Origin: a virus
DNA: 64,000 bases
IMG/VR virus record: IMGVR_UViG_3300021375_000011
Location: 1-64,000 of that record
Strand: one strand, 5' to 3'
Shown: positions 871-54,771 of the stretch, one piece after another
How positions within the stretch are numbered: position 1 is the stretch's first letter
Layout of the letters: each line of letters begins with the position of its first letter
The notes under the pieces: model-generated
What the model was told of the DNA's origin: nothing
Databases searched by the model: none
Seen by the model: the letters and a program-made list of their open reading frames with translations, nothing else
Made by a program: the position numbers and the translations under genes

Positions 871-2847
871 TTACCTATTTACGAGGTAAAGCATTCTTTC
901 TAATGCTTCGTTTGTTAACGCTGGATCACGTTCTGCTTTAAGTGCTTGTTTGCCAGTATCAACATCTTGTGTTTCTTCAACTTCGTTTTGTTGTCCTGCA
1001 AGTCTTAATAGCTCTGCCATCTCGCGATTTTCATCTAGGTCATCGTCTGCTAAATCATCCTGTGCCATTGGATCAACTGCTTTTTCGTTATCAGTGCCAT
1101 CTTGGTCGTTTGGATTAACAAAACTATCCATGCCTTCTTCAACATCTGAACCGCCAGCAGTTTTAACCACATCTTGTCCGCCCATGCCCATTTCTAAACT
1201 GCGTTCTTTACCTGCGGCTGCCGCTGCCTGTCCTGCTTGATATCCACTAGCAGTTTCTTGATCAGTTGGATTTTCGTTTATATTCTCAACAACGTAGAAT
1301 GTGATACTTTCATCACTGTTTTCGCCTGATTCACCGTCTTCAAGTTTTTTACCTGTTATTTTTTCTATGCCTGCTCTAAACTTTTTGTCATACATTAAGT
1401 CATCAATATCGGCGCCACTTATTCCAACTACTATATTCGAACCAATACCTGGATTTGTGTAAGTGGTAATATCACTTACGGATACTACACCAGCATTTTG
1501 TGACATTACTTTTTTATTTACTTGCATAACTTGTGGATCAGGTCCTTCATCTTCGCTCACACTTTCATCATATCCAAGTTTACCATCATCCTTCATGCTC
1601 ATACTTGCAGGAGTGTCTGTGAATTCTATATTGTCTATACCAAGTTCTTGAGCACGTGCCATTACTAATTTTCTGCAATCTGCATCTGGATCTTTGTCTG
1701 CTAGTTCACCAATGTCATCAAACAAACTGTCATCGCCAATCAAGTCATAAAGTTGTTCTGAAGCATACTCGCCATCAGGTCCACATGGTAGAGGCTTTGA
1801 CATAAGCTCTTGTAGCCTTGCCATGTCTTCTGCAGTTTCTGGCAATGCCCATGTACCTTCCATTATTTGGTTGGTCCAGTTTTCAAATTGGTTTGCTTCT
1901 TTCATTGTGCTTTCCCTTATTTTTGCTAGTATAGGCAATGCTTCTTCGATACGGCTATCAACTGCACTGTTTACAAATACTTCTCTTACACTTTCAATTG
2001 TTTCGTCTAATTCTGTTACTATCATTGGGTCGTACGTACTAAAAATTTCTTTGTATCCACGTTTGCCAATCATCTTCTTGGCTTTGCGTTTTAGATCTGC
2101 ATAATGCTTTACTGCATCTTCTACTATGCCTAGTGCTTGTTCGTTTTGTGCAAATGCATTACTGCGACTTGCTCTTACAAATTTGCCTAGTGTTTTAATT
2201 TCATTTATTGTTTCGCTTATGTACTGTCCAAATGCATCATATGGCGTGCCACCTTCACTTACATGACGTGCCATTGCTTTAGCACCGGCAATGCTTTCAA
2301 ACGGCATGCGAAATCTTTCACCTTGACTATTCTCAACAAACAAACTTGCAATGTTTCTAAAACGTTGCTCGCCTTCACCTATGGCACGTGAGTGTTGTAT
2401 TACAACTTTTGCTTTGCCGGGTTGATTGCTATAGCTCTTGCTTTTACCTTGGGCTTTCCATGCTTCCATTACCAAGCTCTCGCTTAGGTCAGCCATAGTA
2501 GCCATACTATACTTGAGTTTGTTCATATTATTCAAACTAAATGTCAGTAGGTTACGCTTGGCAGTTTGTCTTAGCATAGCGAGAAAATCATACCATTCGC
2601 CCTTATCGCCAACTTCCATACCCTTGCCGAGATTATCACCATAGTATACTTCTAAATCATTGTCACCGTTGATTAGTACTACAACTGTTCCGTACTCGTT
2701 GCCATTCACACTAAAATTAAATGAGAATAGGTCTGCTTCACTTGGATTTACCGTAGGCTTACCCATCGAATCCAAGCTCTTTGGATCTAAATCTCTAGTT
2801 ACTAACAAATCATATATTTGTTGTGATGCTGTGTTTTCTTGTGCCAT
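871..2847 (-). CDS. Large acidic protein of unknown function (658 aa), probable virion protein
   Basis: This product is not recognised. It starts MAQENTASQQIYDLLVTRDL, is acidic, and has two visible parts: an N-terminal, apparently folded half (to about residue 330) with helices rich in Lys/Glu, and a C-terminal half that is D/E/G/Q-rich and looks disordered, with GYQAGQAAAAAGKE and several DD/EE runs. There is no signal peptide or membrane segment. It follows the terminase large subunit on the same strand (12-base gap) and has its own late-type box ATAAATAC 6-13 bases before the ATG, so it is expressed late. That context suggests a structural or packaging-associated protein, for example one held inside the head. 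Function is not assignable from sequence alone. Confidence 0.85.
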   Translation of the reverse strand: MAQENTASQQIYDLLVTRDLDPKSLDSMGKPTVNPSEADLFSFNFSVNGNEYGTVVVLINGDNDLEVYYGDNLGKGMEVGDKGEWYDFLAMLRQTAKRNLLTFSLNNMNKLKYSMATMADLSESLVMEAWKAQGKSKSYSNQPGKAKVVIQHSRAIGEGEQRFRNIASLFVENSQGERFRMPFESIAGAKAMARHVSEGGTPYDAFGQYISETINEIKTLGKFVRASRSNAFAQNEQALGIVEDAVKHYADLKRKAKKMIGKRGYKEIFSTYDPMIVTELDETIESVREVFVNSAVDSRIEEALPILAKIRESTMKEANQFENWTNQIMEGTWALPETAEDMARLQELMSKPLPCGPDGEYASEQLYDLIGDDSLFDDIGELADKDPDADCRKLVMARAQELGIDNIEFTDTPASMSMKDDGKLGYDESVSEDEGPDPQVMQVNKKVMSQNAGVVSVSDITTYTNPGIGSNIVVGISGADIDDLMYDKKFRAGIEKITGKKLEDGESGENSDESITFYVVENINENPTDQETASGYQAGQAAAAAGKERSLEMGMGGQDVVKTAGGSDVEEGMDSFVNPNDQDGTDNEKAVDPMAQDDLADDDLDENREMAELLRLAGQQNEVEETQDVDTGKQALKAERDPALTNEALERMLYLVNR

Positions 2848-2852
2848 GTACG

Positions 2853-2860
2853 TATTTATT
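2853..2860 (-). promoter_or_regulatory. Late promoter box before the 658 aa gene
   Basis: AATAAATA read on the minus strand, six bases from the ATG. Matches the T4 late consensus TATAAATA at seven of eight positions; very close to the start codon, so the leader would be extremely short. Confidence 0.5.
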
Positions 2861-4460
2861 AAAACATTGCCACAAACGGCATTGGTTCAATATTCTCCTC
2901 GCTGAAATCTGTTAGGTGTGAATCAAGTTCTTTGTGATAACTTGTAAGAACCTGTAGCATACGAATCGCTAGAAGCGTACTCATTACCAAATCGTCTGTT
3001 TCGCCGGGCTTGCCTGCATAACTTGTGCCATGTGCAACAAAGTTTTTAAGCTCACCAATTAAACTAGGAGAGCTTATTGTCATCTTGTTTGTTTCGACTA
3101 GTGTTTTTAACTTAGCACAGGCTGCTATTTTACTTTTATTGGTTGTGTTGAAACCTTTTCTGTATCTTCTACCACTGGCACTTACAATAGTATTGTCGCT
3201 TAAAAAGTATCCTTCAATATTTTGCTCGCCATACTGCTCGATACATAACAAGGCTGCCTCGCCAATTGTATTATTTTCTACACTATAATAAACACTTTGT
3301 GGTTCTTGCACAGTTTCGTTAATATGCTTTACTATTTCTACAAGTATACGTATTTGATCTGTAATTGGTGTTTTGTTATGGCGCCATTCTGCTATCTGTA
3401 CTGTACTATTTGCTTCAAACACTTGTATTGCACTAGGATCACCTCCTGTGCCTAAACTTGGATCAAGTGCCACAGTGTATATTCTGCCCTTTTGAGGATT
3501 TTTATACCAACGTACCTGTCCAGTTTTATAAAGTGGCTCGCTAACTCCTTCAAGGTCAATAAGTTTTGTTGGAGATATAAGCGTTTCATCTGAGATAATA
3601 AATTCACAGTCCATCTCACGACGGAAACGTTCAACACCTAATATGTTACGTTGTTCTTCTGCCCAATCATCATCTCTGTCTGGATGCTCTCGCCAAAATG
3701 CTCTGTATGCTTTGAAGCCATTGATGCCCAGTTCTTTTTGATTGCCAAACTCGTCTTCAGTTTTGTTTGCACCTTTCCATATAAATGCAAACTGATCTTC
3801 ATCTGAGTTTGGAGTACTTGTAATAATAGCACCACCACCTGTTGATAGTGTAGGCGATATTGATGTCCAGAATTCTCTTGCTATTGTGGGTCGCACAAAT
3901 GCAAACTCATCACAGTATAGCAGTGTAATACTCATACCACGTCCGGTATTTTCAGTTGTTGTTTGTGCAACTATTCTCGATCCATTATCAAATTCTATTG
4001 AGCCTTTATTATAACTTGTTGCTCCAGCACGTATGTGGTCTGGACAGGCTTCGTATGAATATCTCACACGTTGCATAATCTCTTGAGCACCTGCATACTT
4101 GTGTGCCGCAACCAGTATTGTACTATCAGGTTTGAACATAGCATACCATAACAGATATCCGGCAGCACTGGTACTCTTGCCTGTTTGCCTTGGCATCATT
4201 GATATACTAAACCTATAGTTGTGATATGTTTTTATTAGTCTTTCTTGGAACTCCCAAGGATCATACTTCATTTTACCTTGTATTGGATGTTGTATATAGA
4301 AAAAGTTACGTAGAAAATACTCAGGACCTGTTTCAGGGTCAGCACATTTTACAAACTCCTGCAGTTGGTCGTCTGTGAATTCTTGTTTTTTGTAAGGGCT
4401 TTTTACTAAGACCCCATCTTCTTCTCTTGCTACCATAGTACTTCTGCCAATTCTGGCCAT
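2859..4460 (-). CDS. 17: Terminase large subunit gp17 (packaging ATPase and nuclease)
   Basis: This is the motor ATPase that pumps DNA into the prohead and cuts the concatemer. An N-terminal ATPase domain has Walker A MPRQTGKST, Walker B ITLLYCDE and the coupling motif ITSTPNS. The C-terminal RNase H-like nuclease shows the first acidic residue in VALDPSLGTGGD, the second in YYSVENNTIGEA and the third in GETDDLVM. Length (about 533 aa) is a little shorter than T4 gp17 (610). The open frame extends to a TTG at 4496. ATG 4460 (MARIGRST) is chosen because related marine terminases have a similar N-terminus; ATG 4436 is also possible. The 5' end overlaps the end of the radical SAM gene by 31 bases, so the two are translationally linked. 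Confidence 0.95.
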   Translation of the reverse strand: MARIGRSTMVAREEDGVLVKSPYKKQEFTDDQLQEFVKCADPETGPEYFLRNFFYIQHPIQGKMKYDPWEFQERLIKTYHNYRFSISMMPRQTGKSTSAAGYLLWYAMFKPDSTILVAAHKYAGAQEIMQRVRYSYEACPDHIRAGATSYNKGSIEFDNGSRIVAQTTTENTGRGMSITLLYCDEFAFVRPTIAREFWTSISPTLSTGGGAIITSTPNSDEDQFAFIWKGANKTEDEFGNQKELGINGFKAYRAFWREHPDRDDDWAEEQRNILGVERFRREMDCEFIISDETLISPTKLIDLEGVSEPLYKTGQVRWYKNPQKGRIYTVALDPSLGTGGDPSAIQVFEANSTVQIAEWRHNKTPITDQIRILVEIVKHINETVQEPQSVYYSVENNTIGEAALLCIEQYGEQNIEGYFLSDNTIVSASGRRYRKGFNTTNKSKIAACAKLKTLVETNKMTISSPSLIGELKNFVAHGTSYAGKPGETDDLVMSTLLAIRMLQVLTSYHKELDSHLTDFSEENIEPMPFVAMF

Positions 4461-5605
4461 AATTTGTTGAATTGGCCTTTTTGATCGGGATGCCAATCAC
4501 TTTCAAGTGATTCTGTAAAATTTTTAAAGTTTTGGTTGTCGGGACTTAAACTATTACCTTTTCCTACACTTTGTTCTAATTGCTGTATCTGTTGCACTAC
4601 AAAATCTTTTTCATGAGCTGTAAGTTCAAAATTATTTTGATACTTGTGTAGTTCATCAATTGCTAAAGTTCGCACTGCTTTGTTATGATTAACAGGATTA
4701 AGATGGTCTCCCCACACACGTTGCCAAATAATATTAATTTTCTTATCAAGTGAATATTGTTTTAATTCGCATAATCTTGTACAATTATATAGTGTATAAA
4801 CTGCTTGAATTCCGCCGTGATGCTGACTTTTTTCTATTTTATCAGCAACACGAGATACATTCTTGTCCATTCGTTCCCAGCTACTTCCCCATCTAACATA
4901 TTCAAACCTTTTGCCGATATTATCAAAACTCATGCTCCAACCAACACGCGATCTTTTAAGTAGTTTTTGAGGGACTGGCAGTGTATCAAAGTCAGTTGTC
5001 ATATTTGTAATTACAGTGATTAATACATCGTCTGGTAATATATCAAGCAAAGCATTATTTTCTTTCATCATCAATGGTTCACCGCCTACAAGTGCCACTT
5101 CTTTTACATGCGACTGATGTTTTTTAATATAATCAATAATCTTTTGATATTTTGTGTTAATTGTTTGATTTAGATTTTCGCCAAACTGTTCTTTAGCTTC
5201 TCTTATTGCAGCCCATTTTGAACTAAAGTAGGCGCTGCAGTATGTGCAAGCCAGGTTACATGTATTGTTCCAACGAACATCAATTAGGGCAGGCTTATGT
5301 TCTTCTATGTCTGCAGTTGTACAATCAAAATCTGGACTTATGTTGTTGTGCCAGTCTCTCTCGCTTGAAAAACCTTTTTCTTCCCGTTCTATACACCCAT
5401 GACAGTATTTAGGATGTAATATTCCTTGTTTTATACTAGCTCTAACTTCTTGTATTGCTTTACTATTTAAAATAGATTCTATTGATTCTTCTCGTTTTTT
5501 GCCTAACATATTAGGATTGGCGGCACAACATGTTTGCACTTGCCCTTCGAAGTTTAGATGTAGTCCTCGCCAAGGAGAGGCACAATATTTCTTTACAGGT
5601 TCCAT
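4430..5605 (-). CDS. Radical SAM enzyme with N-terminal SPASM/twitch-like cysteine domain
   Basis: The radical SAM cluster motif CNLACTYC (C116, C120, C123) would bind a 4Fe-4S cluster and cleave S-adenosylmethionine; VGGEPLM is the glycine-rich motif that follows it. Before it are additional cysteines in CASPWRGLHLNFEGQVQTCC (C8, C26, C27) and YCHGC (C68, C71), the arrangement of twitch/SPASM-type proteins that hold an auxiliary cluster. Such enzymes modify peptides, proteins or sugars; the substrate here is unknown. The gene lies directly upstream of, and overlaps, terminase, inside a late packaging operon, which is unusual for a metabolic enzyme. It is one of three radical SAM genes in the window, the others at 40825 and 53683. 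Confidence 0.9.
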   Translation of the reverse strand: MEPVKKYCASPWRGLHLNFEGQVQTCCAANPNMLGKKREESIESILNSKAIQEVRASIKQGILHPKYCHGCIEREEKGFSSERDWHNNISPDFDCTTADIEEHKPALIDVRWNNTCNLACTYCSAYFSSKWAAIREAKEQFGENLNQTINTKYQKIIDYIKKHQSHVKEVALVGGEPLMMKENNALLDILPDDVLITVITNMTTDFDTLPVPQKLLKRSRVGWSMSFDNIGKRFEYVRWGSSWERMDKNVSRVADKIEKSQHHGGIQAVYTLYNCTRLCELKQYSLDKKINIIWQRVWGDHLNPVNHNKAVRTLAIDELHKYQNNFELTAHEKDFVVQQIQQLEQSVGKGNSLSPDNQNFKNFTESLESDWHPDQKGQFNKLWPELAEVLW

Positions 5606-10113: not shown

Positions 10114-10781
10114 TAGTAGTTCCTTTTTCCTTTAACATTTTTACCCGGAGGGCCGTCTTTGCGATTCTCCGGAGCCGAACTACCGTTGGCAGCTTTTACG
10201 ACCGGAATCTTGTTAGTACCCATAATAGGACTGTCTACGCCGTTAGGGTAATCTGTTGTAAATTTTGCTGGAGGTGTTTTACCACCTGCTATTGTAAAAT
10301 CACTTGAGTATTCGTTGCCTACTATTTCTCTTTTGTAAGGATCAGCGGCATAGTATTCACTTGCTTTTTTGCTTTCTGAACTTTCTGGTTCTTCACCTTC
10401 TTCAGTGCCTAATACTGGATTAGGTTGCTCTGCATATCCTTTGACTTCCTCATCAACACTGTTAGCATAATCTAATTGTTGAATAATGATGTGATTTGGA
10501 TTCATTCCTAACAACTCAGCTATTTGTGTAATCTGCGGAGGTGTTGCCGGATAATTGAAAGTTACGTCCATAAATGTGCAACTATCGTTCTCTGCATCAG
10601 GAAAGTCTGCTAGTACTTTTTGTATTGGAGTTTTCTTTGGTTCTGTCATCTTTACGACATCAAACTGCTGAAGTTTTTCTTCCAATGCGTTTATTAGTTC
10701 TGGCTCGCAATCGCCTAGTATTTTGATTCTATAATCAAAAGTTTGACGAGTTTCAACCAGGTATTGTGCAAATGATTTCAT
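10113..10781 (-). CDS. Protein of unknown function with CTS-like N-terminus (222 aa)
   Basis: MKSFAQYLVETRQ closely follows the T4 capsid-targeting pattern, with LVE as the possible cleavage site. The next about 110 residues look like a small alpha/beta domain (YRIKILGDCEPELINALEEK, ITQIAELLGMNPNHIIIQQL). The last about 90 are Gly/Pro/Lys-rich and disordered, ending KGKRNY. A late-like box CTAAATAC lies upstream at 10802-10809. It is coupled to the 670 aa gene by TAATG. It is most likely a virion protein; family unknown. Confidence 0.8.
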   Translation of the reverse strand: MKSFAQYLVETRQTFDYRIKILGDCEPELINALEEKLQQFDVVKMTEPKKTPIQKVLADFPDAENDSCTFMDVTFNYPATPPQITQIAELLGMNPNHIIIQQLDYANSVDEEVKGYAEQPNPVLGTEEGEEPESSESKKASEYYAADPYKREIVGNEYSSDFTIAGGKTPPAKFTTDYPNGVDSPIMGTNKIPVVKAANGSSAPENRKDGPPGKNVKGKRNY

Positions 10782-10801
10782 CTTATGTTCCTTCTATGCA
10801 G

Positions 10802-10809
10802 TATTTAGC
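10802..10809 (-). promoter_or_regulatory. Late promoter-like box before the 222 aa gene
   Basis: GCTAAATACTG on the minus strand, about 20 bases before the ATG at 10781. Shares AAATACTG with other late boxes here but has CT in place of AT at the first positions of the core. Confidence 0.4.
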
Positions 10810-10819
10810 AGAATACAAC

Positions 10820-11314
10820 CTATTTTGTTTCTTTGTCTTTAGATAAAAGTCTATCTAAAAGTGCGTTTCTATCTAGTACAACGCCGGTTCCGTCTACTGT
10901 TTCTTCTTTATTTGTGTTGGCTTTTTGATCGAGGTTTGCTTTTTTAAGTTGTAAATCAACCATCTTAAGTTTCTTGTTTAATTTTGCAGTTTTAGCAGTG
11001 ATCGCATGTCCTAGCATTGTACTAGCCACTCCAAATATATCACTTGCCCATCTGCTGTCTACATTCATACCCAAATCCATCATATCATCAAAACCTTTTG
11101 TGGCTTTGTCAGCAAGATCATCCATTTCAGTATCGCTGGCTTCTAATCCACGCACTTGTGGCAATGCGGCTTGCACTTTATCAAGCTCGCTAAGTGTGTT
11201 TTGCATGATTGGGTTGTTTTCTGGCGTTGGTTCAGGAACGTTGTCTGGAGTTACTTCTTCAGTAAGCCCTTCGTCAGTTGGCAAATCAAACAGTTCTTCT
11301 AGTTTCTTGGTCAT
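10820..11314 (-). CDS. 16: Terminase small subunit, gp16-like
   Basis: The 164-residue product matches T4 gp16 (164 aa) in length and layout: an acidic flexible N-terminus (LFDLPTDEGLTEEVTPDNVP), a central helical region (MQNTLSELDKVQAALPQVRG, RWASDIFGVASTMLGHAITA) and a charged coiled-coil segment (KLNKKLKMVDLQLKKANLDQ), with a flexible C-terminus. This subunit forms the ring that recognises phage DNA and regulates the gp17 ATPase. Sequence identity to T4 is low, so the assignment rests on architecture, length and marine-phage family resemblance. It overlaps the CWC-type gene by 29 bases. Confidence 0.75.
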   Translation of the reverse strand: MTKKLEELFDLPTDEGLTEEVTPDNVPEPTPENNPIMQNTLSELDKVQAALPQVRGLEASDTEMDDLADKATKGFDDMMDLGMNVDSRWASDIFGVASTMLGHAITAKTAKLNKKLKMVDLQLKKANLDQKANTNKEETVDGTGVVLDRNALLDRLLSKDKETK

Positions 11315-11450
11315 GTGCTTCCTTTAAACATTTAGGACATATACAATCTTGTAACTTTTGATTCCATTCTACAACTGGCTCTAGCATACACCAACAGGTG
11401 AAATCACTATCACAGGTAAATCTAATGTTACATAGTTCGCAAGTTTTCAT
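11286..11450 (-). CDS. Small cysteine-rich CWC-type protein (54 aa)
   Basis: ATG at 11450, stop TGA at 11286-11288. The product has eight cysteines in the order CELC, C, CWC, CICPKC (positions 4, 7, 13, 19, 21, 36, 38, 41), with F/T residues between them. This is the pattern of the bacterial 'cysteine-rich CWC' family (small zinc- or metal-binding proteins of unknown role). The 3' end overlaps gp16 by 29 bases. The late-like stretch GTAAATAAGTAC lies directly before the ATG. Short length means it is easily missed by gene finders; the conserved cysteine spacing is strong evidence of coding. Confidence 0.75.
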   Translation of the reverse strand: MKTCELCNIRFTCDSDFTCWCMLEPVVEWNQKLQDCICPKCLKEAHDQETRRTV

Positions 11451-11459
11451 TGTACTTAT

Positions 11460-12338
11460 TTACTTTGTTTTGGTAGCATAATCTTTGCTTTTCCAGGTAT
11501 AAATTGCATCAGCAATTTGAATTGTGTTTGTAGGGAACGTTTCATCAGTTAACAATGGATGGTCATAACATCTAAATAGTTTTGCTAGACGATGTGCGAT
11601 ATATGCTTCCTCAACTAAAGTTAAATTTTCTGTAGATAATTCTACGTTTTCTAATACACTTTGAATAATTTTATTACACTTTTTTTGACTTTGGTAGCCT
11701 TGGTTACGTGTTATAAAATTATGCCATATGTTTGCAGTTTCTCTTGTTGGATAAAAATTAAGATTTAGAAAATATGCACATTTATTCAAATGATAATAAA
11801 ATGCTTCTAAATTGTAAAAAGCAGATAATGGAAATACATATTTTTGTCCTGTATGCTTGAAAGTATTCCACATTGAAATACCGTAATTGTCATACTCAAA
11901 TTTACTGTAAAAATGATTTCTTAAAATTTGTTTATCATAATTCTCTTGTATGCCATGTTCATCAATAAGATCTTGAAGATCGAGATACGCTTTTGGTACT
12001 GCCTTTAATTTAAAAATTGTATTCTGGTGAAGATTGATTATATCTACTGTTTGATCACCTGCACGTAAAAGATAATTAGTAAGAGCTGCTAAACGATACT
12101 CTTCGCAACAATGTATTTCAATTACTCTATCATCATCATTAAATGGCACGTTTTCAGCTGAATAATGGCCGGTTGTGATCAATGGAACATAGCCGTCGGT
12201 GTTAACTTTTTCGTGAGCGGCTCCAGCACTATTAAACAACTGTTTGCCTTTCATGGTATTGTTACCGTATACAAACATGTCAAGCATCACTTCTAAAAAG
12301 TTACCGTGACACCCGCCGGAGAAATCTATCTTATCCAT
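11460..12338 (-). CDS. Unknown protein with P-loop-like SGGCHGNFLE start, sulfotransferase-like (292 aa)
   Basis: The N-terminus IDFSGGCHGNFLEVMLDMFVYG has the form of a beta strand, Gly-rich loop and helix, as in sulfotransferase-type nucleotide-binding loops. The remainder is rich in aromatic residues and Asn (NFYPTRETANIWHNFITRNQ), with HCCEEYRLAALTNYLL in the middle. A comparable loop PAGSSGDLLISIV is found in the 232 aa protein at 57045. There is no clear 3'-phosphate motif, so the assignment is tentative. It sits between gp4 and the CWC gene in the late operon and could modify a virion or host surface molecule; that is inference. Confidence 0.7.
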   Translation of the reverse strand: MDKIDFSGGCHGNFLEVMLDMFVYGNNTMKGKQLFNSAGAAHEKVNTDGYVPLITTGHYSAENVPFNDDDRVIEIHCCEEYRLAALTNYLLRAGDQTVDIINLHQNTIFKLKAVPKAYLDLQDLIDEHGIQENYDKQILRNHFYSKFEYDNYGISMWNTFKHTGQKYVFPLSAFYNLEAFYYHLNKCAYFLNLNFYPTRETANIWHNFITRNQGYQSQKKCNKIIQSVLENVELSTENLTLVEEAYIAHRLAKLFRCYDHPLLTDETFPTNTIQIADAIYTWKSKDYATKTK

Positions 12339-26585: not shown

Positions 26586-27025
26586 TCAATGCAGTTGGTG
26601 TATGGTTCTACAGTATTAGTACCAATAGATATTTGTATCTACTTCGTAACGACAATAAAAATCCAGGATGTTGGGGATTGCCAGGTGGTAAAGTTGATAG
26701 TGGAGAAAATCTTACTGATGCAATACAACGCGAATGTTTAGAAGAGATTGGAATATGGCCTGAGATTGTAAAACTTGTTCCAATAGAAAAATTTACCAGT
26801 GCAGATAATCATTTTAGTTATCATACATTTTTTTGTCTTATTAATAACGAATTTACACCAATACTTAATAACGAACATCACGGTTACAGTTGGATTAAAT
26901 CTGGTGTGTGGCCAAAACCTTTACATCCAGGTTTATGGACAACAATAAATTTTGATGAAATATTACTTAAAATTGATACTATAAAAAAGTTTCAAATATC
27001 ACAATATGAAATGAACTCTGCGTAA
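26582..27025 (+). CDS. Nudix hydrolase
   Basis: The Nudix box GGKVDSGENLTDAIQRECLE continues as EIGI and fits GX5EX7REUXEEXGU (the first U position is Cys). Upstream WGLPGGKV is the usual lead-in. Such enzymes hydrolyse nucleoside diphosphates linked to other moieties; the substrate cannot be named. The only start is a TTG overlapping the gp15 stop (TTGA). It is read late with gp15. The last 34 bases overlap the convergent sugar-type gene. Confidence 0.88.
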   Translation: MINAVGVWFYSISTNRYLYLLRNDNKNPGCWGLPGGKVDSGENLTDAIQRECLEEIGIWPEIVKLVPIEKFTSADNHFSYHTFFCLINNEFTPILNNEHHGYSWIKSGVWPKPLHPGLWTTINFDEILLKIDTIKKFQISQYEMNSA

Positions 27026-27681
27026 CGCATTTGATTGAAGTTTGCGTTTTTCCTCCACATATCATGGGCACTAGCTCCATCTGATACATAGTAAAAAATT
27101 ACACTAGGATAATCACCAATTACTTTGTTCACAGATTTGACTTTCTTTTCGTCTGGCTGATTAAATTTGTCTTGTGCATCTGCACCAATTAAAAAAACTT
27201 CTTTATGACCGTCAAAACAAGCAAGCCACATAGCAACTGCAAGACTTTTTCCCCGTACACCATAAGGCACAAGATAAAACTCACCTGGATCATCTATACA
27301 GTTACGTGCATGACTGTATACACTTACTTTCTCTTGATACTTTGCTTCTTTGATTTCTGCTAATTTTTCTTTATCAAATTCAACATAAAAATCGCATTGC
27401 ATTTCTCGCCAGCAGTCTTCAGATCCATAAGTTTGCAAACGTTTACGTCCTAGATGCCAACCAGCATGTTGTTCAATTTTTGTTTGTAGGTCCAGTTTGC
27501 CGTTGAACTTAGTATTGTAACGACTAGAACCATTTCCAATCACTGCGGCTCTGCCTGATATATGTTGGTTATCAATTGGATTACTAATCCATTCACGTTC
27601 CTGATGCTTTTTACCGCCAGAAATCTTATGTTCTACAATAACAAACTCGCCATCGTATTCAAGTCGATACCGTTCAGGCAT
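26992..27681 (-). CDS. Glycosyltransferase- or sugar-processing-like protein A (229 aa)
   Basis: The product shares two diagnostic pieces with the 195 aa protein at 39424-40011: a start of the type AVIGNGSSRYNTKF (compare FILGNGKSRLSVDL) and LACFDGHKEVFLIGAD (compare LACIDGHSDIYLIGMD, 10 of 16 identical). This is a Rossmann-like design (first strand-loop GNG.SR, later conserved CxDGH...LIGxD). Similar proteins in bacteria carry DUF115/Maf-type or LPS-modification annotations; I do not claim a reaction. It is the last gene of the fibre operon (coupled by TAATG), which suggests modification of fibre proteins or host glycan. Confidence 0.75.
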   Translation of the reverse strand: MPERYRLEYDGEFVIVEHKISGGKKHQEREWISNPIDNQHISGRAAVIGNGSSRYNTKFNGKLDLQTKIEQHAGWHLGRKRLQTYGSEDCWREMQCDFYVEFDKEKLAEIKEAKYQEKVSVYSHARNCIDDPGEFYLVPYGVRGKSLAVAMWLACFDGHKEVFLIGADAQDKFNQPDEKKVKSVNKVIGDYPSVIFYYVSDGASAHDMWRKNANFNQMRYAEFISYCDI

Positions 27682-38788: not shown

Positions 38789-39427
38789 TTAAAATATAAT
38801 TCCAAAAACAATAGCCTTGCTTTTGCTTACTAGTTCATCTGTTGTTGTATCGTCTACAAAGTAAACGCCTGTTCCGCCACTTCCAGCAATCCCGCCATGT
38901 AACACCGTGGTATTTGTTACTGCACCTGGAGCGGCACTGTCTTTGAGTTGTAATCCTGTGCTGATATTTACATTTCCGGTTAGGTTCAACTGACTAGTGT
39001 CTGTAAATGTCATATTTGCACTAGCACCAAATGCACCCGAATTGTTGAACTGTACTTGTGTATTTGCTCCTGCAACTGATCCAGATACAGCAGTTCCAAT
39101 TTCACTCCAAGTACCAGTTTCACCAGTGCTACCTGTGCTTGTGCTTAGTTCCCATTTATTGTCATTGGTATTATAACGAATGCCAGCAAATGTTGTAGCT
39201 GTTTTATGTGTTAACAATCCAGCATTACTTGCATAAGTTGAAGTGTTACTCATGTTAACCATAACAAAAGGATCTTTTACATCCAATTGTTCTGTATTGA
39301 TATATGTAACGTTACCGTTGACAGTTAGGTTACCGTCAATTTCTGTGTTACTGGCAATATGAACCATATCAGTCGCATTTATGGTTTCAATATAATAGTC
39401 GCCGTCAATTCTTTTCTTTGTGTTCAT
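38789..39427 (-). CDS. Fibre-module protein (212 aa)
   Basis: MNTKKRIDGDYYIETINATD, then GNLTVNGNVTYINTEQLDVK and AGLLTHKTATTFAGIRYNTN: the pattern seen at the start of shaft domains of phage fibres. The end KSKAIVFGIIF is short and hydrophobic. It is coupled by ATGA to the 195 aa sugar-type gene and has a late-like box inside that gene's 3' end (39451-39444). Probably an adaptor or short fibre. Confidence 0.78.
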   Translation of the reverse strand: MNTKKRIDGDYYIETINATDMVHIASNTEIDGNLTVNGNVTYINTEQLDVKDPFVMVNMSNTSTYASNAGLLTHKTATTFAGIRYNTNDNKWELSTSTGSTGETGTWSEIGTAVSGSVAGANTQVQFNNSGAFGASANMTFTDTSQLNLTGNVNISTGLQLKDSAAPGAVTNTTVLHGGIAGSGGTGVYFVDDTTTDELVSKSKAIVFGIIF

Positions 39428-40011
39428 AATGGGCCTCTAGCAGTATTTACCATCTCTAGAAAGCTCTGCATACTGATTATTTTCATGTTGTTAATTTTAC
39501 CAAACTGTTTTACAAATGCACTTTCTACGCCCTCTACTCTATAAAACTGTCTGTTTGGATAGTCTTCTGTAAGTTTTACAAGTTGATTTATCCAGTTGCC
39601 AGCGTATGTTGGTGGATCAAGTTCTTTTTTATAAAACTGTGTATCAACATAAACATTATTAAACATTCCGTTTGTTGTGCCTAAATCCATGCCAATTAGA
39701 TAAATGTCACTGTGTCCATCAATACATGCAAGAGCTGCCGCATTTGGTCCGCTACTAAATCCTTTGTATTCGTTAGTTAAATGCTTACCACCTAAATCAA
39801 CTATAGGTTTGCGTGTGTGAAATCTATGCTTTTGTGCATAGCCACTTTGTTGAATACTATCTGCAATTGGTCTATCTGTTGCAACTAAGCAATCTGGAGT
39901 AAAGGTTTTGCATAACCAATTGCATCCATAGGTAGCACCCAATGGCGATAACTTTGTCAAATCAACCGACAGTCTACTTTTGCCATTTCCTAGAATAAAT
40001 GCAGTACTCAT
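39424..40011 (-). CDS. Glycosyltransferase- or sugar-processing-like protein B (195 aa)
   Basis: Related to the 229 aa protein at 26992-27681: FILGNGKSRLSVDL near the start and LACIDGHSDIYLIGMD in the middle, with a ...GAT YGCNW and DCLVATDRP pair typical of Rossmann-type nucleotide-sugar or DUF115-like proteins. The ATG at 40011 follows a terminator's T-run directly and there is no Shine-Dalgarno sequence; an in-frame TGA at 40021-40023 rules out an upstream start. The gene leads the fibre operon, so modification of fibre or host glycan is a reasonable inference. Confidence 0.78.
   Translation of the reverse strand: MSTAFILGNGKSRLSVDLTKLSPLGATYGCNWLCKTFTPDCLVATDRPIADSIQQSGYAQKHRFHTRKPIVDLGGKHLTNEYKGFSSGPNAAALACIDGHSDIYLIGMDLGTTNGMFNNVYVDTQFYKKELDPPTYAGNWINQLVKLTEDYPNRQFYRVEGVESAFVKQFGKINNMKIISMQSFLEMVNTARGPL
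39444..39451 (-). promoter_or_regulatory. Late promoter-like box (212 aa gene)
   Basis: GGTAAATACTG on the minus strand, 17 bases before the ATG of the 212 aa gene, inside the upstream coding region. Confidence 0.5.
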
Positions 40012-40067: not shown

Positions 40068-40763
40068 TTAACCTAGTGAAGCATTCTCAATTTGTACTAG
40101 ATCACGTGTGTTTGGTGATGCAGATGAACCTGATCCACCAATAACAACTGTGTCATCTAGTTGATTAAAAAAGTTTAACAACACTACACCACCTGAAAAA
40201 GATATCCCGTGTTTGTTACTAAAACGCTTTAGACGAACTGCTGATGATCCAATATCAGTATATGACACTGTCATATCACCTACTGCAAGAGCTGAATCGT
40301 TAACATTTGCTAATGTGCATATTCCACATTCAGCAACAGTTCCTGATGAACCAGCAGCCGAAGCAGCTTCTACAGTAAAAATAGCTCCGTTTGAGACAAA
40401 TCCGTCTCCGGGCATTCCCATCGCATTCCAATCAGTATCACCAACTGACACAATTCTTACTATGCTACCAACTACTGCGTTTGCAGGGTCAATTGCACTT
40501 GCGTCTAGTCTTGACACAAGATACTTTGACGCACCTTTTTGTCTTACTATAAAACCGTCACCTTCAGCAGTAATACTTCCGCCACCTGGTCTAATTCTTG
40601 TTGTTGTTACTGGAAAGTCATAGTCACTTGTACTAATGTTTCCACCAACTACACCATAGAACAATTCTCCTGCTGGAGTTGGCGTCATTCCAATTAACGG
40701 TCCTGGATTGTTAAATCCAGCATCCTGTGTATCGGATATTTTTATTTTTAACGGTCTTCCCAT
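40068..40763 (-). CDS. Probable head decoration or capsid-associated protein (231 aa)
   Basis: MGRPLKIKISDTQDAGFNNP, then beta-rich and Gly-rich (GGGSITAEGDGFIVRQKGAS), a segment SVGDTDWNAMGMPGDGFVSN and a final VVLLNFFNQLDDTVVIGGSG. MGRPL-type starts and the TDWNAMG segment recur in virion proteins of marine T4-like phages located just after gp23. Its late promoter (TATAAATA, 40846-40839) and terminator make a single strong transcription unit, as expected for a high-copy decoration protein. Function inferred from this. Confidence 0.75.
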   Translation of the reverse strand: MGRPLKIKISDTQDAGFNNPGPLIGMTPTPAGELFYGVVGGNISTSDYDFPVTTTRIRPGGGSITAEGDGFIVRQKGASKYLVSRLDASAIDPANAVVGSIVRIVSVGDTDWNAMGMPGDGFVSNGAIFTVEAASAAGSSGTVAECGICTLANVNDSALAVGDMTVSYTDIGSSAVRLKRFSNKHGISFSGGVVLLNFFNQLDDTVVIGGSGSSASPNTRDLVQIENASLG

Positions 40764-40785
40764 TTGTTTTCTCCTTATAAAGTTC

Positions 40786-40824: not shown

Positions 40825-41496
40825 TTATTGTGCAACTGTATTTATAGGATCAAACGTTTTACGCCAGTCTGTACCACGTATTCGATCGACTTTATCAAAT
40901 TGTTCAAGAGTTGTACCTGCATAGTTATAAGATATGTAATGGTCTTCTGGAAGTGTTACCTTTGCCCAGTCCACTACATGTTTATGTGTATGTCTGTTTA
41001 GATGTGATATTGTAATGTTAACTGCAAAGTCTACACTTTCAGGCGCATTTTGCACAATCCATTTTACATTACTATCAACTTTAGTCCATTTTGCTGGCCA
41101 ACGAAGATATTCAAAGTGTTCTCCAACTCCGTCAATGCTGAAACAGATGGATATACGTTTATAATACGAACATGTATTTAGAAACTCTAAACTTGGTTTC
41201 ACTGTGCCGTTAAAGTGTATGTGAAATCTCATATCCGTGTTTTTAAATTTTTCTAATACCTCATGTGTCGATTTGTGTAGTATTGGCTCGCCGCCGCCAA
41301 TTATAATGTGTTTGAGACCGGTAAAGTCTAAATCATCAACTGTTTGATTAAAGGCATACGACTCAACAGGCAATTTTTTTAATGCTTGCCAACGTGTACT
41401 GGCATGTTCGTCGCAAGTTGAACAAGCAAGATTACAAATTTTGCCAGGATCAAATGTTGCACATGTAGGATCTTTTGAGTTTATGTTCAGTATCAT
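40825..41496 (-). CDS. Radical SAM enzyme, short twitch-type (223 aa)
   Basis: CNLACSTC (C21, C25, C28) is the radical SAM cluster motif, with GGGEPI as the next glycine motif and RISICFSIDGVGEHFEYLRW as the strand-loop region. VGWSMSFDNIGKRFEYVRWG in the 391 aa enzyme is clearly related, so the two are paralogues, but this one lacks the N-terminal cysteine domain. The gene has its own perfect late promoter placed just after the gp23 terminator. Radical SAM chemistry late in infection and next to the capsid gene suggests virion protein modification; substrate unknown. Confidence 0.88.
   Translation of the reverse strand: MILNINSKDPTCATFDPGKICNLACSTCDEHASTRWQALKKLPVESYAFNQTVDDLDFTGLKHIIIGGGEPILHKSTHEVLEKFKNTDMRFHIHFNGTVKPSLEFLNTCSYYKRISICFSIDGVGEHFEYLRWPAKWTKVDSNVKWIVQNAPESVDFAVNITISHLNRHTHKHVVDWAKVTLPEDHYISYNYAGTTLEQFDKVDRIRGTDWRKTFDPINTVAQ
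40839..40846 (-). promoter_or_regulatory. Late promoter box (231 aa gene)
   Basis: Exact TATAAATACAG on the minus strand, inside the 3' end of the radical SAM gene, 76 bases before the ATG. Confidence 0.75.
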
Positions 41497-41500
41497 GATG

Positions 41501-41508
41501 TATTTATA
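41501..41508 (-). promoter_or_regulatory. Late promoter box (radical SAM gene)
   Basis: Exact TATAAATAC on the minus strand only five bases before the ATG at 41496; the transcript would start at or inside the start codon unless an upstream message is used. Confidence 0.65.
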
Positions 41509-41511
41509 GTC

Positions 41512-41541
41512 AAAAAAATAGCACCCGAAGGTGCTATTTTT
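41512..41541 (-). terminator. Rho-independent terminator after gp23
   Basis: Stem AAATAGCACC/GGTGCTATTT with TTCG tetraloop and seven Ts on the minus strand. Core identical to the hairpin at 29960-29986. Confidence 0.88.
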
Positions 41542-41559: not shown

Positions 41560-42747
41560 TTATGAGAATGATAAGTTGCTAACTGCAATTTCACCCACAT
41601 AGTCACCGGCATTACCAAATGAACTTGCAGTGTTTGATAACTCGATATATCCATATCTAGTCATGAAACTTACTACTGGCTCAAATGTTGACGGATCTAA
41701 TACAACGCCAGAACTCATTAGCGGTACGTATGGACAGTAGAATGCTGGAGCGTCAGTTTCTGATGCACCTTTGTATCCTACTAATACTGCTTGAGCGTCT
41801 GATGCATATGAATCACAGAATACTCTCATTGTACCGTTTAATGTACCTACAAACTTTGTGTTTGTTGGTGCTTCAAAAGTACCTTCTGTTGTTCTAGCAA
41901 ATGCTGAAGTTGTAGCTGATTGTAACACTGTTAATGAAGCTGGTGAAACAACTGCATAGTTACCTGCACCACGTCTTGTACGTTGTGCAATTAAGTTAGC
42001 TGTTCTGTTTATTAACACTGCTAAAGCGGCATGCTCATCACCAACGAAAGTAGCAGTACCTGATACTGCAGCCTGGTTGTATGTGAATTCAGTTGCGGCT
42101 AATGTACGTAGAGATAATAGAATCTCTTGATCGATCTCAGCAGTAATCTCTTGAGCTAATGCTGCCATGATTTCTGCTTCTACATCGATACCGTGCATTG
42201 CTTGTGCATCTTGAGCTGCTTCAAAAGTCCAACGAGCTGACAATTTACGTGTCTTTGCTTCTACAGGTTGCTTTAAGATCTGTACAGAAATTTTGTTACC
42301 TGCTGTACCTTCAAGTACTGCTGTGTTTCCACCACCGTAACCAGTTGCGGTTCCAGCGTTGTTAGAATATGCAGTTGCAATCTTGAATGGTGATAATGCT
42401 TCTTCGCCAGCAGTTGTTGATGTTGCGGCTAGGGAGTTATCAGTCATTGAGTCTGCATAACGTACTCTAAGTGTGTGAATTTGACCAACTGGTCCAGTCA
42501 TAGGCTGAACACCAACTAATTCGTTAGCAATAACAGTAGGCATAACCCTTCTTATTACAGGTAAAATAACTCTGTTTAGAGTTGCAATGTTACCTGATGC
42601 AGTTGATCCCGCTGTTGCGTTCTCAGCTAAGTGTTTGCGAGTGTTTTCTAAGATAACACCCATTGTTGAGCGACGAGCACCTTGTAATCCTTCTAGGAGG
42701 GCTTCTTTGGTCTCACCCCAACGGCTTTCTAGTAGTTCTTGTGACAT
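41560..42747 (-). CDS. 23: Major capsid protein gp23
   Basis: The 395-residue product contains LNRVILPVIRRVMPTVIANE, VGVQPMTGPVGQIHTLRVRY, QPVEAKTRKLSARWTFEAAQ and QEITAEIDQEILLSLRTLAA, all hallmarks of T4-type capsid protein. A gp21 cleavage site is probable at LAE/NATAG near residue 42. It is shorter than T4 gp23 (521 aa), as usual for the marine branch. It follows gp22 by 20 bases and ends at a strong terminator, consistent with highest late expression. Confidence 0.96.
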   Translation of the reverse strand: MSQELLESRWGETKEALLEGLQGARRSTMGVILENTRKHLAENATAGSTASGNIATLNRVILPVIRRVMPTVIANELVGVQPMTGPVGQIHTLRVRYADSMTDNSLAATSTTAGEEALSPFKIATAYSNNAGTATGYGGGNTAVLEGTAGNKISVQILKQPVEAKTRKLSARWTFEAAQDAQAMHGIDVEAEIMAALAQEITAEIDQEILLSLRTLAATEFTYNQAAVSGTATFVGDEHAALAVLINRTANLIAQRTRRGAGNYAVVSPASLTVLQSATTSAFARTTEGTFEAPTNTKFVGTLNGTMRVFCDSYASDAQAVLVGYKGASETDAPAFYCPYVPLMSSGVVLDPSTFEPVVSFMTRYGYIELSNTASSFGNAGDYVGEIAVSNLSFS

Positions 42748-45535: not shown

Positions 45536-45757
45536 CTACAATTGCGGAGGAGGTGGAGCAAACTGTGCTTGTATCTTTTTAAGTTCTTCAGTTTTTTCAT
45601 AGTTACGCATATCATACATCTTACGCAACTTTGATATTTGCTTTAGCGTAAGTTTAGTCTTGCGTAGCTCTCCAAGCTCGGGAACACTGTTGTCAGCTTC
45701 TTGGTCTTGGTAATCTTCGTCTGATTGATCGTGATCATAAAATTCAAATAGTTTCAT
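45536..45757 (-). CDS. 67: Small prohead core protein (gp67-like)
   Basis: The 73-residue product MKLFEFYDHDQSDEDYQDQE is acidic at the start, then basic and helical (TLKQISKLRKMYDMRNYEKT), and ends in a Pro tract. Position immediately after portal and size agree with T4 gp67 (80 aa), the small core protein processed by gp21; LGE in the middle fits the cleavage rule. It has its own late box. Confidence 0.75.
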   Translation of the reverse strand: MKLFEFYDHDQSDEDYQDQEADNSVPELGELRKTKLTLKQISKLRKMYDMRNYEKTEELKKIQAQFAPPPPQL

Positions 45758-45762
45758 AATAG

Positions 45763-45770
45763 TATTTATA
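45763..45770 (-). promoter_or_regulatory. Late promoter box (gp67-like)
   Basis: Exact TATAAATACT on the minus strand six bases before the ATG, inside the 3' end of gp20. Confidence 0.65.
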
Positions 45771-53275: not shown

Positions 53276-53683
53276 TTACTCTTTTAATATGCCTTTTTGG
53301 TGTACACGGACCCGTATGTGCCCATTATACCATTGTTTTGATTCTAGTACTTTGTGTGTGAATTGTTCTCTTGCTTCAATGTAACTGAGTTCACTTTTAC
53401 TGCTACACCAAAACATGATTTCACGTTTAAACTTGTCTTTTCCTAATAGTTCCACATCTGCAGTAAGTTCATCACTACTTCCATAATAGTCTCGCCAATC
53501 GCTTTCAACTGTATACCTACGTTTGTTTGTTCTTCCCTTCAGAGGCTTCTTACTGCGTTTAAACTGAGTAAGTTTCTTGCCAATGTACTTTCTATCATTG
53601 GTAGTATTTGTTATCAAATATACAAACCCTATGAACTCTGCAGGAATTTCAGTTACTTCTTTATTTTTGTATAGCCATGTCAT
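53276..53683 (-). CDS. GIY-YIG domain nuclease-like protein (135 aa)
   Basis: GFVYLITNTTNDRKYIGKKL (residues 19-38) is a variant of the GIY-YIG motif, followed by a basic stretch KRSKKPLKGRTNKRRY and ESDWRDYYGSSDELTADVEL, then ELSYIEAREQFTHKVLESKQ with the usual Glu. This compact phage protein is widespread among marine T4-like phages. It may nick DNA or act as a small homing-type endonuclease. It is coupled to the radical SAM gene by one base and lies beside the structured RNA block, raising (but not proving) a mobile RNA/endonuclease link. Confidence 0.82.
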   Translation of the reverse strand: MTWLYKNKEVTEIPAEFIGFVYLITNTTNDRKYIGKKLTQFKRSKKPLKGRTNKRRYTVESDWRDYYGSSDELTADVELLGKDKFKREIMFWCSSKSELSYIEAREQFTHKVLESKQWYNGHIRVRVHQKGILKE

Positions 53684-54771
53684 CAGTTTGTTTCATAGCC
53701 AACTGCATAATTTTCATCTACTACTTCGGCCCTGCATTTGAGACTGCACTCAACCCAGGTGTCCTTGTGCATACTGTCAAAAAACTTTTGCCACAGATCG
53801 TGATTAAGTACTTCTTCAAAACTCAAACCGTTTTTTATATTTAGAATCTGTCTATATTTCTCAAAAAAACTTTCTTTGTACACACTGGTTTTGTTACCAT
53901 AACTCATTGCATCATAAGGGAAACTAGTCCAACTGCATGGATGCAATGTGCCTTCTGCATTTACATACATGCCTCTATTGCCAATCTTACAAAGAGGTAC
54001 AATGCCGTTTATAGGTTTTGTATGCAAATATTTTTGCAAATTTGTTGTCATATAATGTTCTGTATTTTGTATTCTATTTTTTAATTTTTGAATGTGTCTT
54101 TCATATCTATCTGTTTTGCTTATGTACTCATTGCGTGGTTCTAGTGTATCCTTACCATAAGCACCATCATATTTGCTACTGAACTTTGTGCTTTTGGTCC
54201 ATTGTATACTGTCGCATCCATTTTGCTTTGCTAGGTCAATGATAGCACTGGTATGATCTTGATTAAAAGCAAAGTATATGGCTGCCCAGTTTACAAATGC
54301 CGAGGACTTATGCCCCATAATACGCATACCCTCCATGATGCTTTTGAAATTATTGTTTACTCTATACAAGTTGTTGCTTTCTTGATCATAACCATCCACA
54401 CTAAAGTTTATGGTATCATATTCGTTGCTGATATCTGCAAATTGTTCCCACCAGGTAGAAGTTTTATAACTTCCATTTGTGATTGTGTACACATGGCAAG
54501 TTGGTTTGATAGTTTTGATATATTCTACAATTTTTAAATAATCTTTACAATAGATACTGTCACCAACATCACCGCACATGGTAAAACGTTGTACGTACTC
54601 GCTGATAAAATCAGCAGTAAAAGCACTCTGAAATTGTTCCAAACTTAGTTCTTTGTTTAGCCAAGGAGTATCGGGCATTTCTGTTCTAGGACATCTTGGA
54701 CACTTCAAACTGCATTTACTGCTAGGTTCAATATGCCAATGATAAAATTGCCAACCGTACTTGTTATACAT
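53683..54771 (-). CDS. Radical SAM/SPASM enzyme (362 aa)
   Basis: CSLKCPRC (C20, C24, C27) is the cluster motif; FTMCGDVGDS replaces the usual GGEP region. The C-terminus has SPASM-type cysteines: PLCKIGNRGMYVNAEGTLHP then CSW (C261, C279) and CSLKC (C342, C346). Such enzymes modify ribosomal peptides, proteins or sugars using an extra Fe-S cluster. No precursor peptide is seen nearby. It is followed by an SDR oxidoreductase (overlap of 8 bases) and forms a small cassette beside gp46. Confidence 0.9.
   Translation of the reverse strand: MYNKYGWQFYHWHIEPSSKCSLKCPRCPRTEMPDTPWLNKELSLEQFQSAFTADFISEYVQRFTMCGDVGDSIYCKDYLKIVEYIKTIKPTCHVYTITNGSYKTSTWWEQFADISNEYDTINFSVDGYDQESNNLYRVNNNFKSIMEGMRIMGHKSSAFVNWAAIYFAFNQDHTSAIIDLAKQNGCDSIQWTKSTKFSSKYDGAYGKDTLEPRNEYISKTDRYERHIQKLKNRIQNTEHYMTTNLQKYLHTKPINGIVPLCKIGNRGMYVNAEGTLHPCSWTSFPYDAMSYGNKTSVYKESFFEKYRQILNIKNGLSFEEVLNHDLWQKFFDSMHKDTWVECSLKCRAEVVDENYAVGYETN

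What the first reader, a model, noticed from the sequence alone, without database searches (positions are those of the whole stretch)
40825..41496. Second radical SAM enzyme with its own late promoter beside the capsid gene
Placed between gp23 and a decoration-like protein, with an exact TATAAATA box. Conserved IDGVGEHFEYLRW versus FDNIGKRFEYVRWG in the 391 aa enzyme shows the two are paralogues; the small one lacks the auxiliary cluster domain. Two such paralogues in one phage suggests distinct substrates or a two-step process.
Basis: partly seen in the sequence, partly recalled or inferred. Interest (0 to 1): 0.62.

Follow-up and report, generated by a model that had tools for sequence, protein, structure and literature searches.

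The report
Swappable late phage radical-SAM gene
A small radical-chemistry enzyme gene next to a phage's main capsid gene is real and probably active, but it sits there because that junction is a slot where related phages insert, swap or lack extra genes, so its position does not show that it acts on the capsid.

Summary
40825-41496(-) encodes a 223-aa radical SAM protein (rS223) between gp23 and a 231-aa ORF (d231). TATAAATA lies 4 nt before its ATG, and the auxiliary-cluster domain of the 391-aa protein is missing. The model is confident (pLDDT 92) and dN/dS is about 0.2, so it is probably an active enzyme.

The interpretation changes. The phage record has ten radical SAM places, not two. 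The 223- and 391-aa proteins are distant co-members of the N_Twi_rSAM subfamily (about 20% identity), not sisters. The 391-aa gene is a fixed neighbour of the terminase; rS223 is patchy: present in five contigs, absent from 27 whose site is empty, while others hold a glycosyltransferase-like or TPR-glycosyltransferase gene there. The insert runs late box, ORF, late box; the downstream box encodes the ORF's last codons, and unrelated cargo ends the same way.

Best reading: a mobile, late, probably leaderless cargo cassette whose enzyme most likely works with phage glycan enzymes (substrate inferred). Virion modification is not excluded. Phages with many radical SAM genes are already published (PMC5332604). 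New here are the domain-less variant, the box-ORF-box slot and a leaderless-looking class of late genes.

The parts
40825..41496 (-). rS223: 223-aa radical SAM protein, twitch-less N_Twi_rSAM type; CX3CX2C at C21/C25/C28, GGGEP at 67-71, FEYLRW at 128-133
41500..41508 (-). Late promoter box TATAAATAC, 3 nt before the rS223 ATG (probable leaderless start)
   Evidence: same spacing in five homologous loci
41512..41541 (-). Terminator-like hairpin AAAAATAGCACC-TTCG-GGTGCTATTTTTTT between gp23 and rS223, also present in empty-site relatives
   Evidence: sequence
40838..40846 (-). Second late box TATAAATAC, the promoter of d231; it also encodes residues near the C-terminus of rS223 (...CCT ATA AAT ACA GTT GCA CAA TAA)
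40770..40776 (-). Shine-Dalgarno-like AAGGAGA of d231; rS223 has none
   Evidence: sequence
40068..40763 (-). d231: conserved 231-aa ORF of unknown function downstream of the slot
41560..42747 (-). gp23 major capsid protein, upstream flank of the slot
   Evidence: PF07068
39424..40011 (-). m195: conserved neighbour, weakly MptE-like / alpha-2,3-sialyltransferase-like
4430..5605 (-). rS391: full-length N_Twi_rSAM (SPASM at residues 8-71), fixed beside the terminase gene in relatives
53683..54771 (-). Third radical SAM gene in the window: 362 aa, with a weak C-terminal SPASM match

Best explanation
rS223 is a probably active, twitch-less relative of the N_Twi_rSAM subfamily, carried as a single-gene, exchangeable cargo cassette in a late-gene slot between gp23 and d231. 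The cassette is built box-ORF-box: a T4-type late promoter box (TATAAATAC) ends 3 nt before the ATG, so the late transcript should begin at or next to the AUG (leaderless), and the ORF runs into the next gene's late box, which supplies its last codons. Made late in infection, the enzyme would hold one [4Fe-4S] cluster through C21/C25/C28, cleave SAM to a 5'-deoxyadenosyl radical and abstract a hydrogen from its substrate. The most likely substrate is a sugar or glycan intermediate handled together with the phage's glycosyltransferase-type genes, altering a glycan of the host surface or the virion. Shown by computation: the gene, purifying selection, the fold, the promoter class, empty and alternative-cargo sites, scattered distribution. 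Inferred: leaderless transcription, catalytic activity, glycan substrate.
For: Intact frame with invariant catalytic motifs in five loci, dN/dS 0.17-0.28, pLDDT 92.3 and pTM 0.88, fold matches to solved radical SAM enzymes. Late box at fixed spacing and a bimodal box-to-ATG distance over all loci. Slot census: 5 rS223, 27 empty, 4 family X, 8 TPR-GT, 1 X plus TPR-GT, 4 other among contigs that reach d231. Presence of rS223 needs five changes on a tree of flanking genes, at least four forced by supported branches. Unrelated cargo in L101 and L076 ends in the same box-encoded tail. Glycan link: family X also lies between or beside the island radical SAM genes and resembles GT-B glycosyltransferases by fold, weakly; the TPR cargo has a weak GT9 match; a carbamoyltransferase, and further downstream DegT and epimerase genes, accompany the island.
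Against: No substrate is shown. Best Foldseek hits are peptide maturases (SkfB, SuiB), not sugar enzymes. Family X has no Pfam match and its fold hits are at E 0.009 or worse. Leaderless transcription is inferred from spacing only. Contigs in the census are not independent lineages.
Confidence: 0.5

Rival explanations
1. Virion maturase: rS223 modifies a virion protein (gp23, d231 or a neighbour), as radical SAM peptide maturases modify their precursors; lying beside gp23 gives timing and proximity.
For: Late expression beside head genes; best solved folds are the peptide maturases SkfB and SuiB; relatives carry other radical SAM genes at another head-gene junction, gp20 / small MKLFEF gene.
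Against: Closest relatives with an empty slot keep nearly the same gp23, and keep the d231 ECGIC or ECGTC cysteine pair, so neither neighbour depends on the enzyme. No SPASM or twitch domain, which most peptide maturases have. The slot takes glycosyltransferase-type genes as well.
Confidence: 0.2
2. Nucleotide- or tRNA-directed enzyme: a viperin-, QueE- or NrdG-like single-cluster protein acting on nucleotides, for host takeover or counter-defence.
For: Single-cluster size and weak matches: QueE 41 bits, viperin 25 bits, PADLOC pVip 33 bits; viperin and QueE structures among the fold hits.
Against: All far below curated cut-offs (QueE 260, viperin 180, NrdG2 131), and N_Twi_rSAM scores much higher at 116 bits.
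Confidence: 0.08
3. Degenerate fragment: a decayed N_Twi_rSAM that lost its N-terminal domain and has no function.
For: The N-terminal quarter of the family model is unmatched.
Against: Five loci keep an intact 220-223-aa frame at dN/dS about 0.2, with all catalytic motifs, a fixed start 3 nt after a late box and a confident fold.
Confidence: 0.04

Closest known systems
NCBIfam NF033640, N_Twi_rSAM (twitch domain-containing radical SAM protein)
   Same: Core domain, CX3CX2C, GGEP and the EY.R signature; match at 116 bits over profile positions 106-308
   Different: N-terminal twitch/SPASM-like cluster domain absent; score below the curated cut-off of 170; separate clade on a long branch
Multi-radical-SAM T4-like marine phages, such as TARA_ERS488813_N000010 with 12 radical SAM genes (PMC5332604)
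   Same: T4-like, marine type of record with many radical SAM genes plus an Fe-S assembly (PF01883) gene
   Different: That report describes gene content; it does not describe a twitch-less form, a gp23 slot or late-box cassettes in the section read
Radical SAM proteins of Vibrio phages nt-1 and KVP40 group
   Same: Nearest relatives among annotated phage records, 29-31% identity over 72-77% of the protein
   Different: No record covers 80% of the query; the genomic setting of those genes was not examined
T4-type late promoter, NATAAATA in marine cyanophages S-PM2 and Syn9 (PMC2984593)
   Same: Same box; enriched and upstream of genes here
   Different: Here many boxes lie 3-5 nt from the ATG without a Shine-Dalgarno-like sequence
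Mobile regulatory cassettes of T4-type phages (Arbiol et al. 2010, PMC2839356; recalled, text not held)
   Same: Idea of modular gene shuffling carried by regulatory sequence
   Different: As recalled those cassettes use early promoter and stem-loop sequence; here a late box borders the cargo. Not testable as the paper is not held

Membership tests
Radical SAM superfamily (PF04055) | Score over the Pfam cut-off and a CX3CX2C cluster motif | tested here: met
   35.6 bits against 29.5; C21, C25, C28 invariant in 40 sequences
Radical SAM superfamily (PF04055) | Reductive cleavage of SAM to 5'-deoxyadenosine | not testable with these tools
   Needs biochemistry; fold and motifs are compatible
NF033640 N_Twi_rSAM | Score over the curated cut-off of 170 bits | tested here: not met
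   116.3 bits
NF033640 N_Twi_rSAM | N-terminal twitch/SPASM-like cluster domain | tested here: not met
   Match starts at profile position 106; no PF13186 in rS223
NF033640 N_Twi_rSAM | Core domain with GGEP and EY.R signature | tested here: met
   Profile 106-308 matched at E 1.7e-33; G68 G69 E70 R132 invariant, P71 E129 Y130 nearly so
Prokaryotic viperin (NF038283, PADLOC pVip) | Score over the curated cut-off of 180 bits | tested here: not met
   25.4 bits; pVip 33 bits
QueE (TIGR03963, TIGR03365) | Score over the curated cut-offs of 260.1 and 206.1 bits | tested here: not met
   40.8 and 24.3 bits
Radical SAM/SPASM peptide maturases | C-terminal SPASM domain | tested here: not met
   No SPASM match; the protein ends after the core
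Radical SAM/SPASM peptide maturases | Precursor peptide encoded nearby | not tested
   No systematic search for small precursor ORFs was made
T4-type late promoter | NATAAATA box upstream of late genes, more often than chance | tested here: met
   ATAAATAC 11 against 4.1 expected, all upstream of genes
T4-type late promoter | Late transcription factors gp33, gp45, gp55 encoded by the phage | not tested
   The record is incomplete and these genes were not sought

The most novel reading that the evidence does not exclude
Large T4-like phages carry a radical-SAM-centred glycan pathway: a conserved five-enzyme island plus swappable late cassettes (radical SAM or glycosyltransferase) plugged into head-gene promoter boxes and translated from leaderless mRNAs, letting each lineage change a surface sugar of the virion or host at assembly time.
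Probability: 0.25. Interest if true: 0.68.

Novelty: new variant of a known kind. Interest (0 to 1): 0.45.

Why it matters
It explains why an odd enzyme lies beside a capsid gene: the junction is a slot for exchangeable late genes, so closeness to gp23 should not be read as action on the virion. It also exposes a conserved radical SAM island and a class of apparently leaderless late genes in an uncultured group of T4-like phages; both can be tested.

Tried and rejected
(1) d231 as a dedicated substrate through its ECGIC motif: the cysteine pair is kept in phages without rS223. (2) rS223 and rS391 as a sister pair: rejected by the tree and by their different genomic histories. (3) Viperin, QueE, NrdG: scores far below cut-off. 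(4) Cellular source of the family: two genome-contig scans, with rS410 and rS427, found no relatives; weak evidence, since the scan relies on short exact patterns. (5) Over-representation of exact TATAAATA in the window: not above chance, unlike ATAAATAC. (6) Family X by Pfam: nothing useful; by fold only weak GT-B matches. (7) d231 as a known decoration protein: no PHROG or Pfam match, also with distant homologues. (8) The paper on mobile regulatory cassettes is not held.

Full report
WHAT IS THERE. The window is part of a 120,835-bp virus record with T4-type head genes; gp23 matches PF07068 at E 1e-97, and its best relatives in annotated phages are jumbo and T4-like phages at 63-68% identity. 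The ORF at 40825-41496(-) has 223 residues, CX3CX2C at C21/C25/C28, GGGEP at 67-71, and matches PF04055 above its cut-off. The best family is NF033640, N_Twi_rSAM: 116 bits over profile positions 106-308 of 398, below the cut-off of 170 because the N-terminal twitch/SPASM-like domain is absent. The 391-aa protein at 4430-5605 has that domain (PF13186, residues 8-71) and passes the cut-off.

TEN, NOT TWO. PF04055 rings at ten places in the record; NF033640 at seven, six of them over cut-off. Five N_Twi_rSAM genes lie in a cluster at 92.6-102.7 kb. That cluster, together with several ORFs without a family and a carbamoyltransferase, is kept in the same order in ten related records, two of which are nearly identical. 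N_Twi_rSAM members occur in all 22 phage records searched, including this one, 1 to 16 per record, and in none of 14 control genomes over cut-off. A T4-like phage with 12 radical SAM genes has been reported (PMC5332604), so abundance as such is not new.

NOT A PAIR. rS223 is 17-25% identical to every other N_Twi_rSAM in a 40-sequence alignment, apart from its four close homologues. It forms a 100%-supported clade on a long branch, apart from rS391 (a quick tree with long branches, so deep placement is unsure). rS391 homologues precede the terminase gene in all eleven relatives found, some of them near-identical (L130-L139, L157). The EY.R motif that suggested paralogy is shared by nearly all 40 members.

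THE SLOT. The order gp21-g362-gp23-[slot]-d231-m195-h212-a104-b137-f1128 is conserved. Among contigs that reach d231, 5 hold rS223, 27 are empty, 4 hold family X, 8 a TPR gene with a weak glycosyltransferase-9 match on the opposite strand, 1 both X and TPR, and 4 something else. L031 has a full-length N_Twi_rSAM plus the TPR gene downstream of gp23. L017 holds only the tail of rS223. Contigs are not independent lineages. On a tree of g362, gp23 and d231, presence of rS223 needs five changes, at least four of them forced by supported branches, so the gene has been gained or lost repeatedly.

THE CASSETTE. Empty sites of the closest relatives read: gp23 stop, hairpin AAAAATAGCACC-TTCG-GGTGCTATTTTTTT or a variant, one ATAAATAC-type box, GCACAATAATG, AAGGAG, d231 ATG, in about 132-146 bp. 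Occupied sites read: the same hairpin, GAC, TATAAATAC, 3 nt, ATG of rS223, ending for example GAT TCC ATA AAT ACT GTT GCA CAA TAA, where the last codons are the d231 box and its flank. The unrelated family X cargo of L101 and L076 ends in the same box-encoded tail, DSIN..AQ. In relatives with an empty gp23 slot (L102, L105, L106, L108; also L126) a different radical SAM gene sits between gp20 and the small gene beginning MKLFEF; in L108 its stop codon lies inside the next late box. Late boxes thus look like joints at which single-gene cargo is exchanged. The recombination mechanism was not tested.

LEADERLESS-LOOKING LATE GENES. Over all loci, the distance from ATAAATAC to the ATG of an ORF is 3-5 nt or 16-30 nt, with almost nothing between. 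Three control 8-mers show no such peak; a fourth, TAAATAAC, which resembles the box, shows a smaller one. A Shine-Dalgarno-like sequence precedes 2 of 27 short-spaced and 27 of 37 long-spaced genes. In T4 the transcript starts about six nucleotides after the box (general knowledge), which would put the 5' end at the AUG. rS223 has a spacing of 3 in all five homologous loci. The box itself is known from marine cyanophages (PMC2984593).

IS IT AN ENZYME? Probably: dN/dS 0.17-0.28, invariant catalytic residues, a model with pLDDT 92.3 and pTM 0.88, fold matches to SkfB, SuiB, viperin, QueE, BlsE and MoaA, and to radical SAM proteins of uncultured phages at TM up to 0.80.

WHAT DOES IT ACT ON? Unknown. 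The glycan reading rests on company. Family X, the alternative cargo, also lies between the island's radical SAM genes in other phages and twice near the island in this one; its model resembles GT-B glycosyltransferases, but only at E 0.009 or worse. The island ends with a carbamoyltransferase, and DegT and epimerase genes lie further downstream. A SAM synthetase and an Fe-S assembly gene (PF01883) flank the carbamoyltransferase. I put the cassette reading at about 0.8 and the glycan substrate alone at about 0.35; the stated 0.5 is for the account as a whole. Virion modification remains possible at about 0.2: the fold resembles peptide maturases most, but gp23 and d231 change little whether the gene is present or not.

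VERDICT. It is a known kind (many-radical-SAM T4-like phages, T4-type late promoter) in a new variant: twitch-less form, late-box cassette, probable leaderless expression.

Noticed in passing
L010:8424-19687 and L011:1429-8466 (record 88.4-108.5 kb): A conserved island of five N_Twi_rSAM genes with family-less ORFs and a carbamoyltransferase, in the same order in ten related phage records.
   Followed up: partly
window 45762-45770 with 45536-45757(-); window 2852-2859 with 871-2847(-); many loci: A class of late genes whose ATAAATAC box lies 3-5 nt before the ATG and which mostly lack a Shine-Dalgarno-like sequence: probably leaderless mRNAs.
   Followed up: partly
L101:2457-3431, L076, L123, L128, L023; L011:9906-10793(-) and 10781-11836(-): Protein family X without Pfam match, weakly GT-B-like by fold, found both in the gp23 slot and among the island radical SAM genes.
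   Followed up: partly
L102:623-1642, L105:670-1659, L108:655-1644, L126:357-1376: A different radical SAM gene inserted between gp20 and the small MKLFEF gene in relatives whose gp23 slot is empty.
   Followed up: partly
L011:5857-6960 and L011:8457-8774: Phage-encoded SAM synthetase and Fe-S assembly protein (PF01883) beside the radical SAM island, plausible supply genes.
   Followed up: no
L160 (G018:38000-57999): A related 116-kb record holds 16 N_Twi_rSAM matches, most of them in one 20-kb stretch.
   Followed up: no
window 39424-40011(-) and 26992-27681(-): Two ORFs with a GNG-S start motif; the first is weakly MptE-like and sialyltransferase-like and is a constant neighbour of d231.
   Followed up: no
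L011:8878-9918(-): 346-aa ORF that looks amidinotransferase-like by eye; no Pfam match at E 0.01.
   Followed up: no
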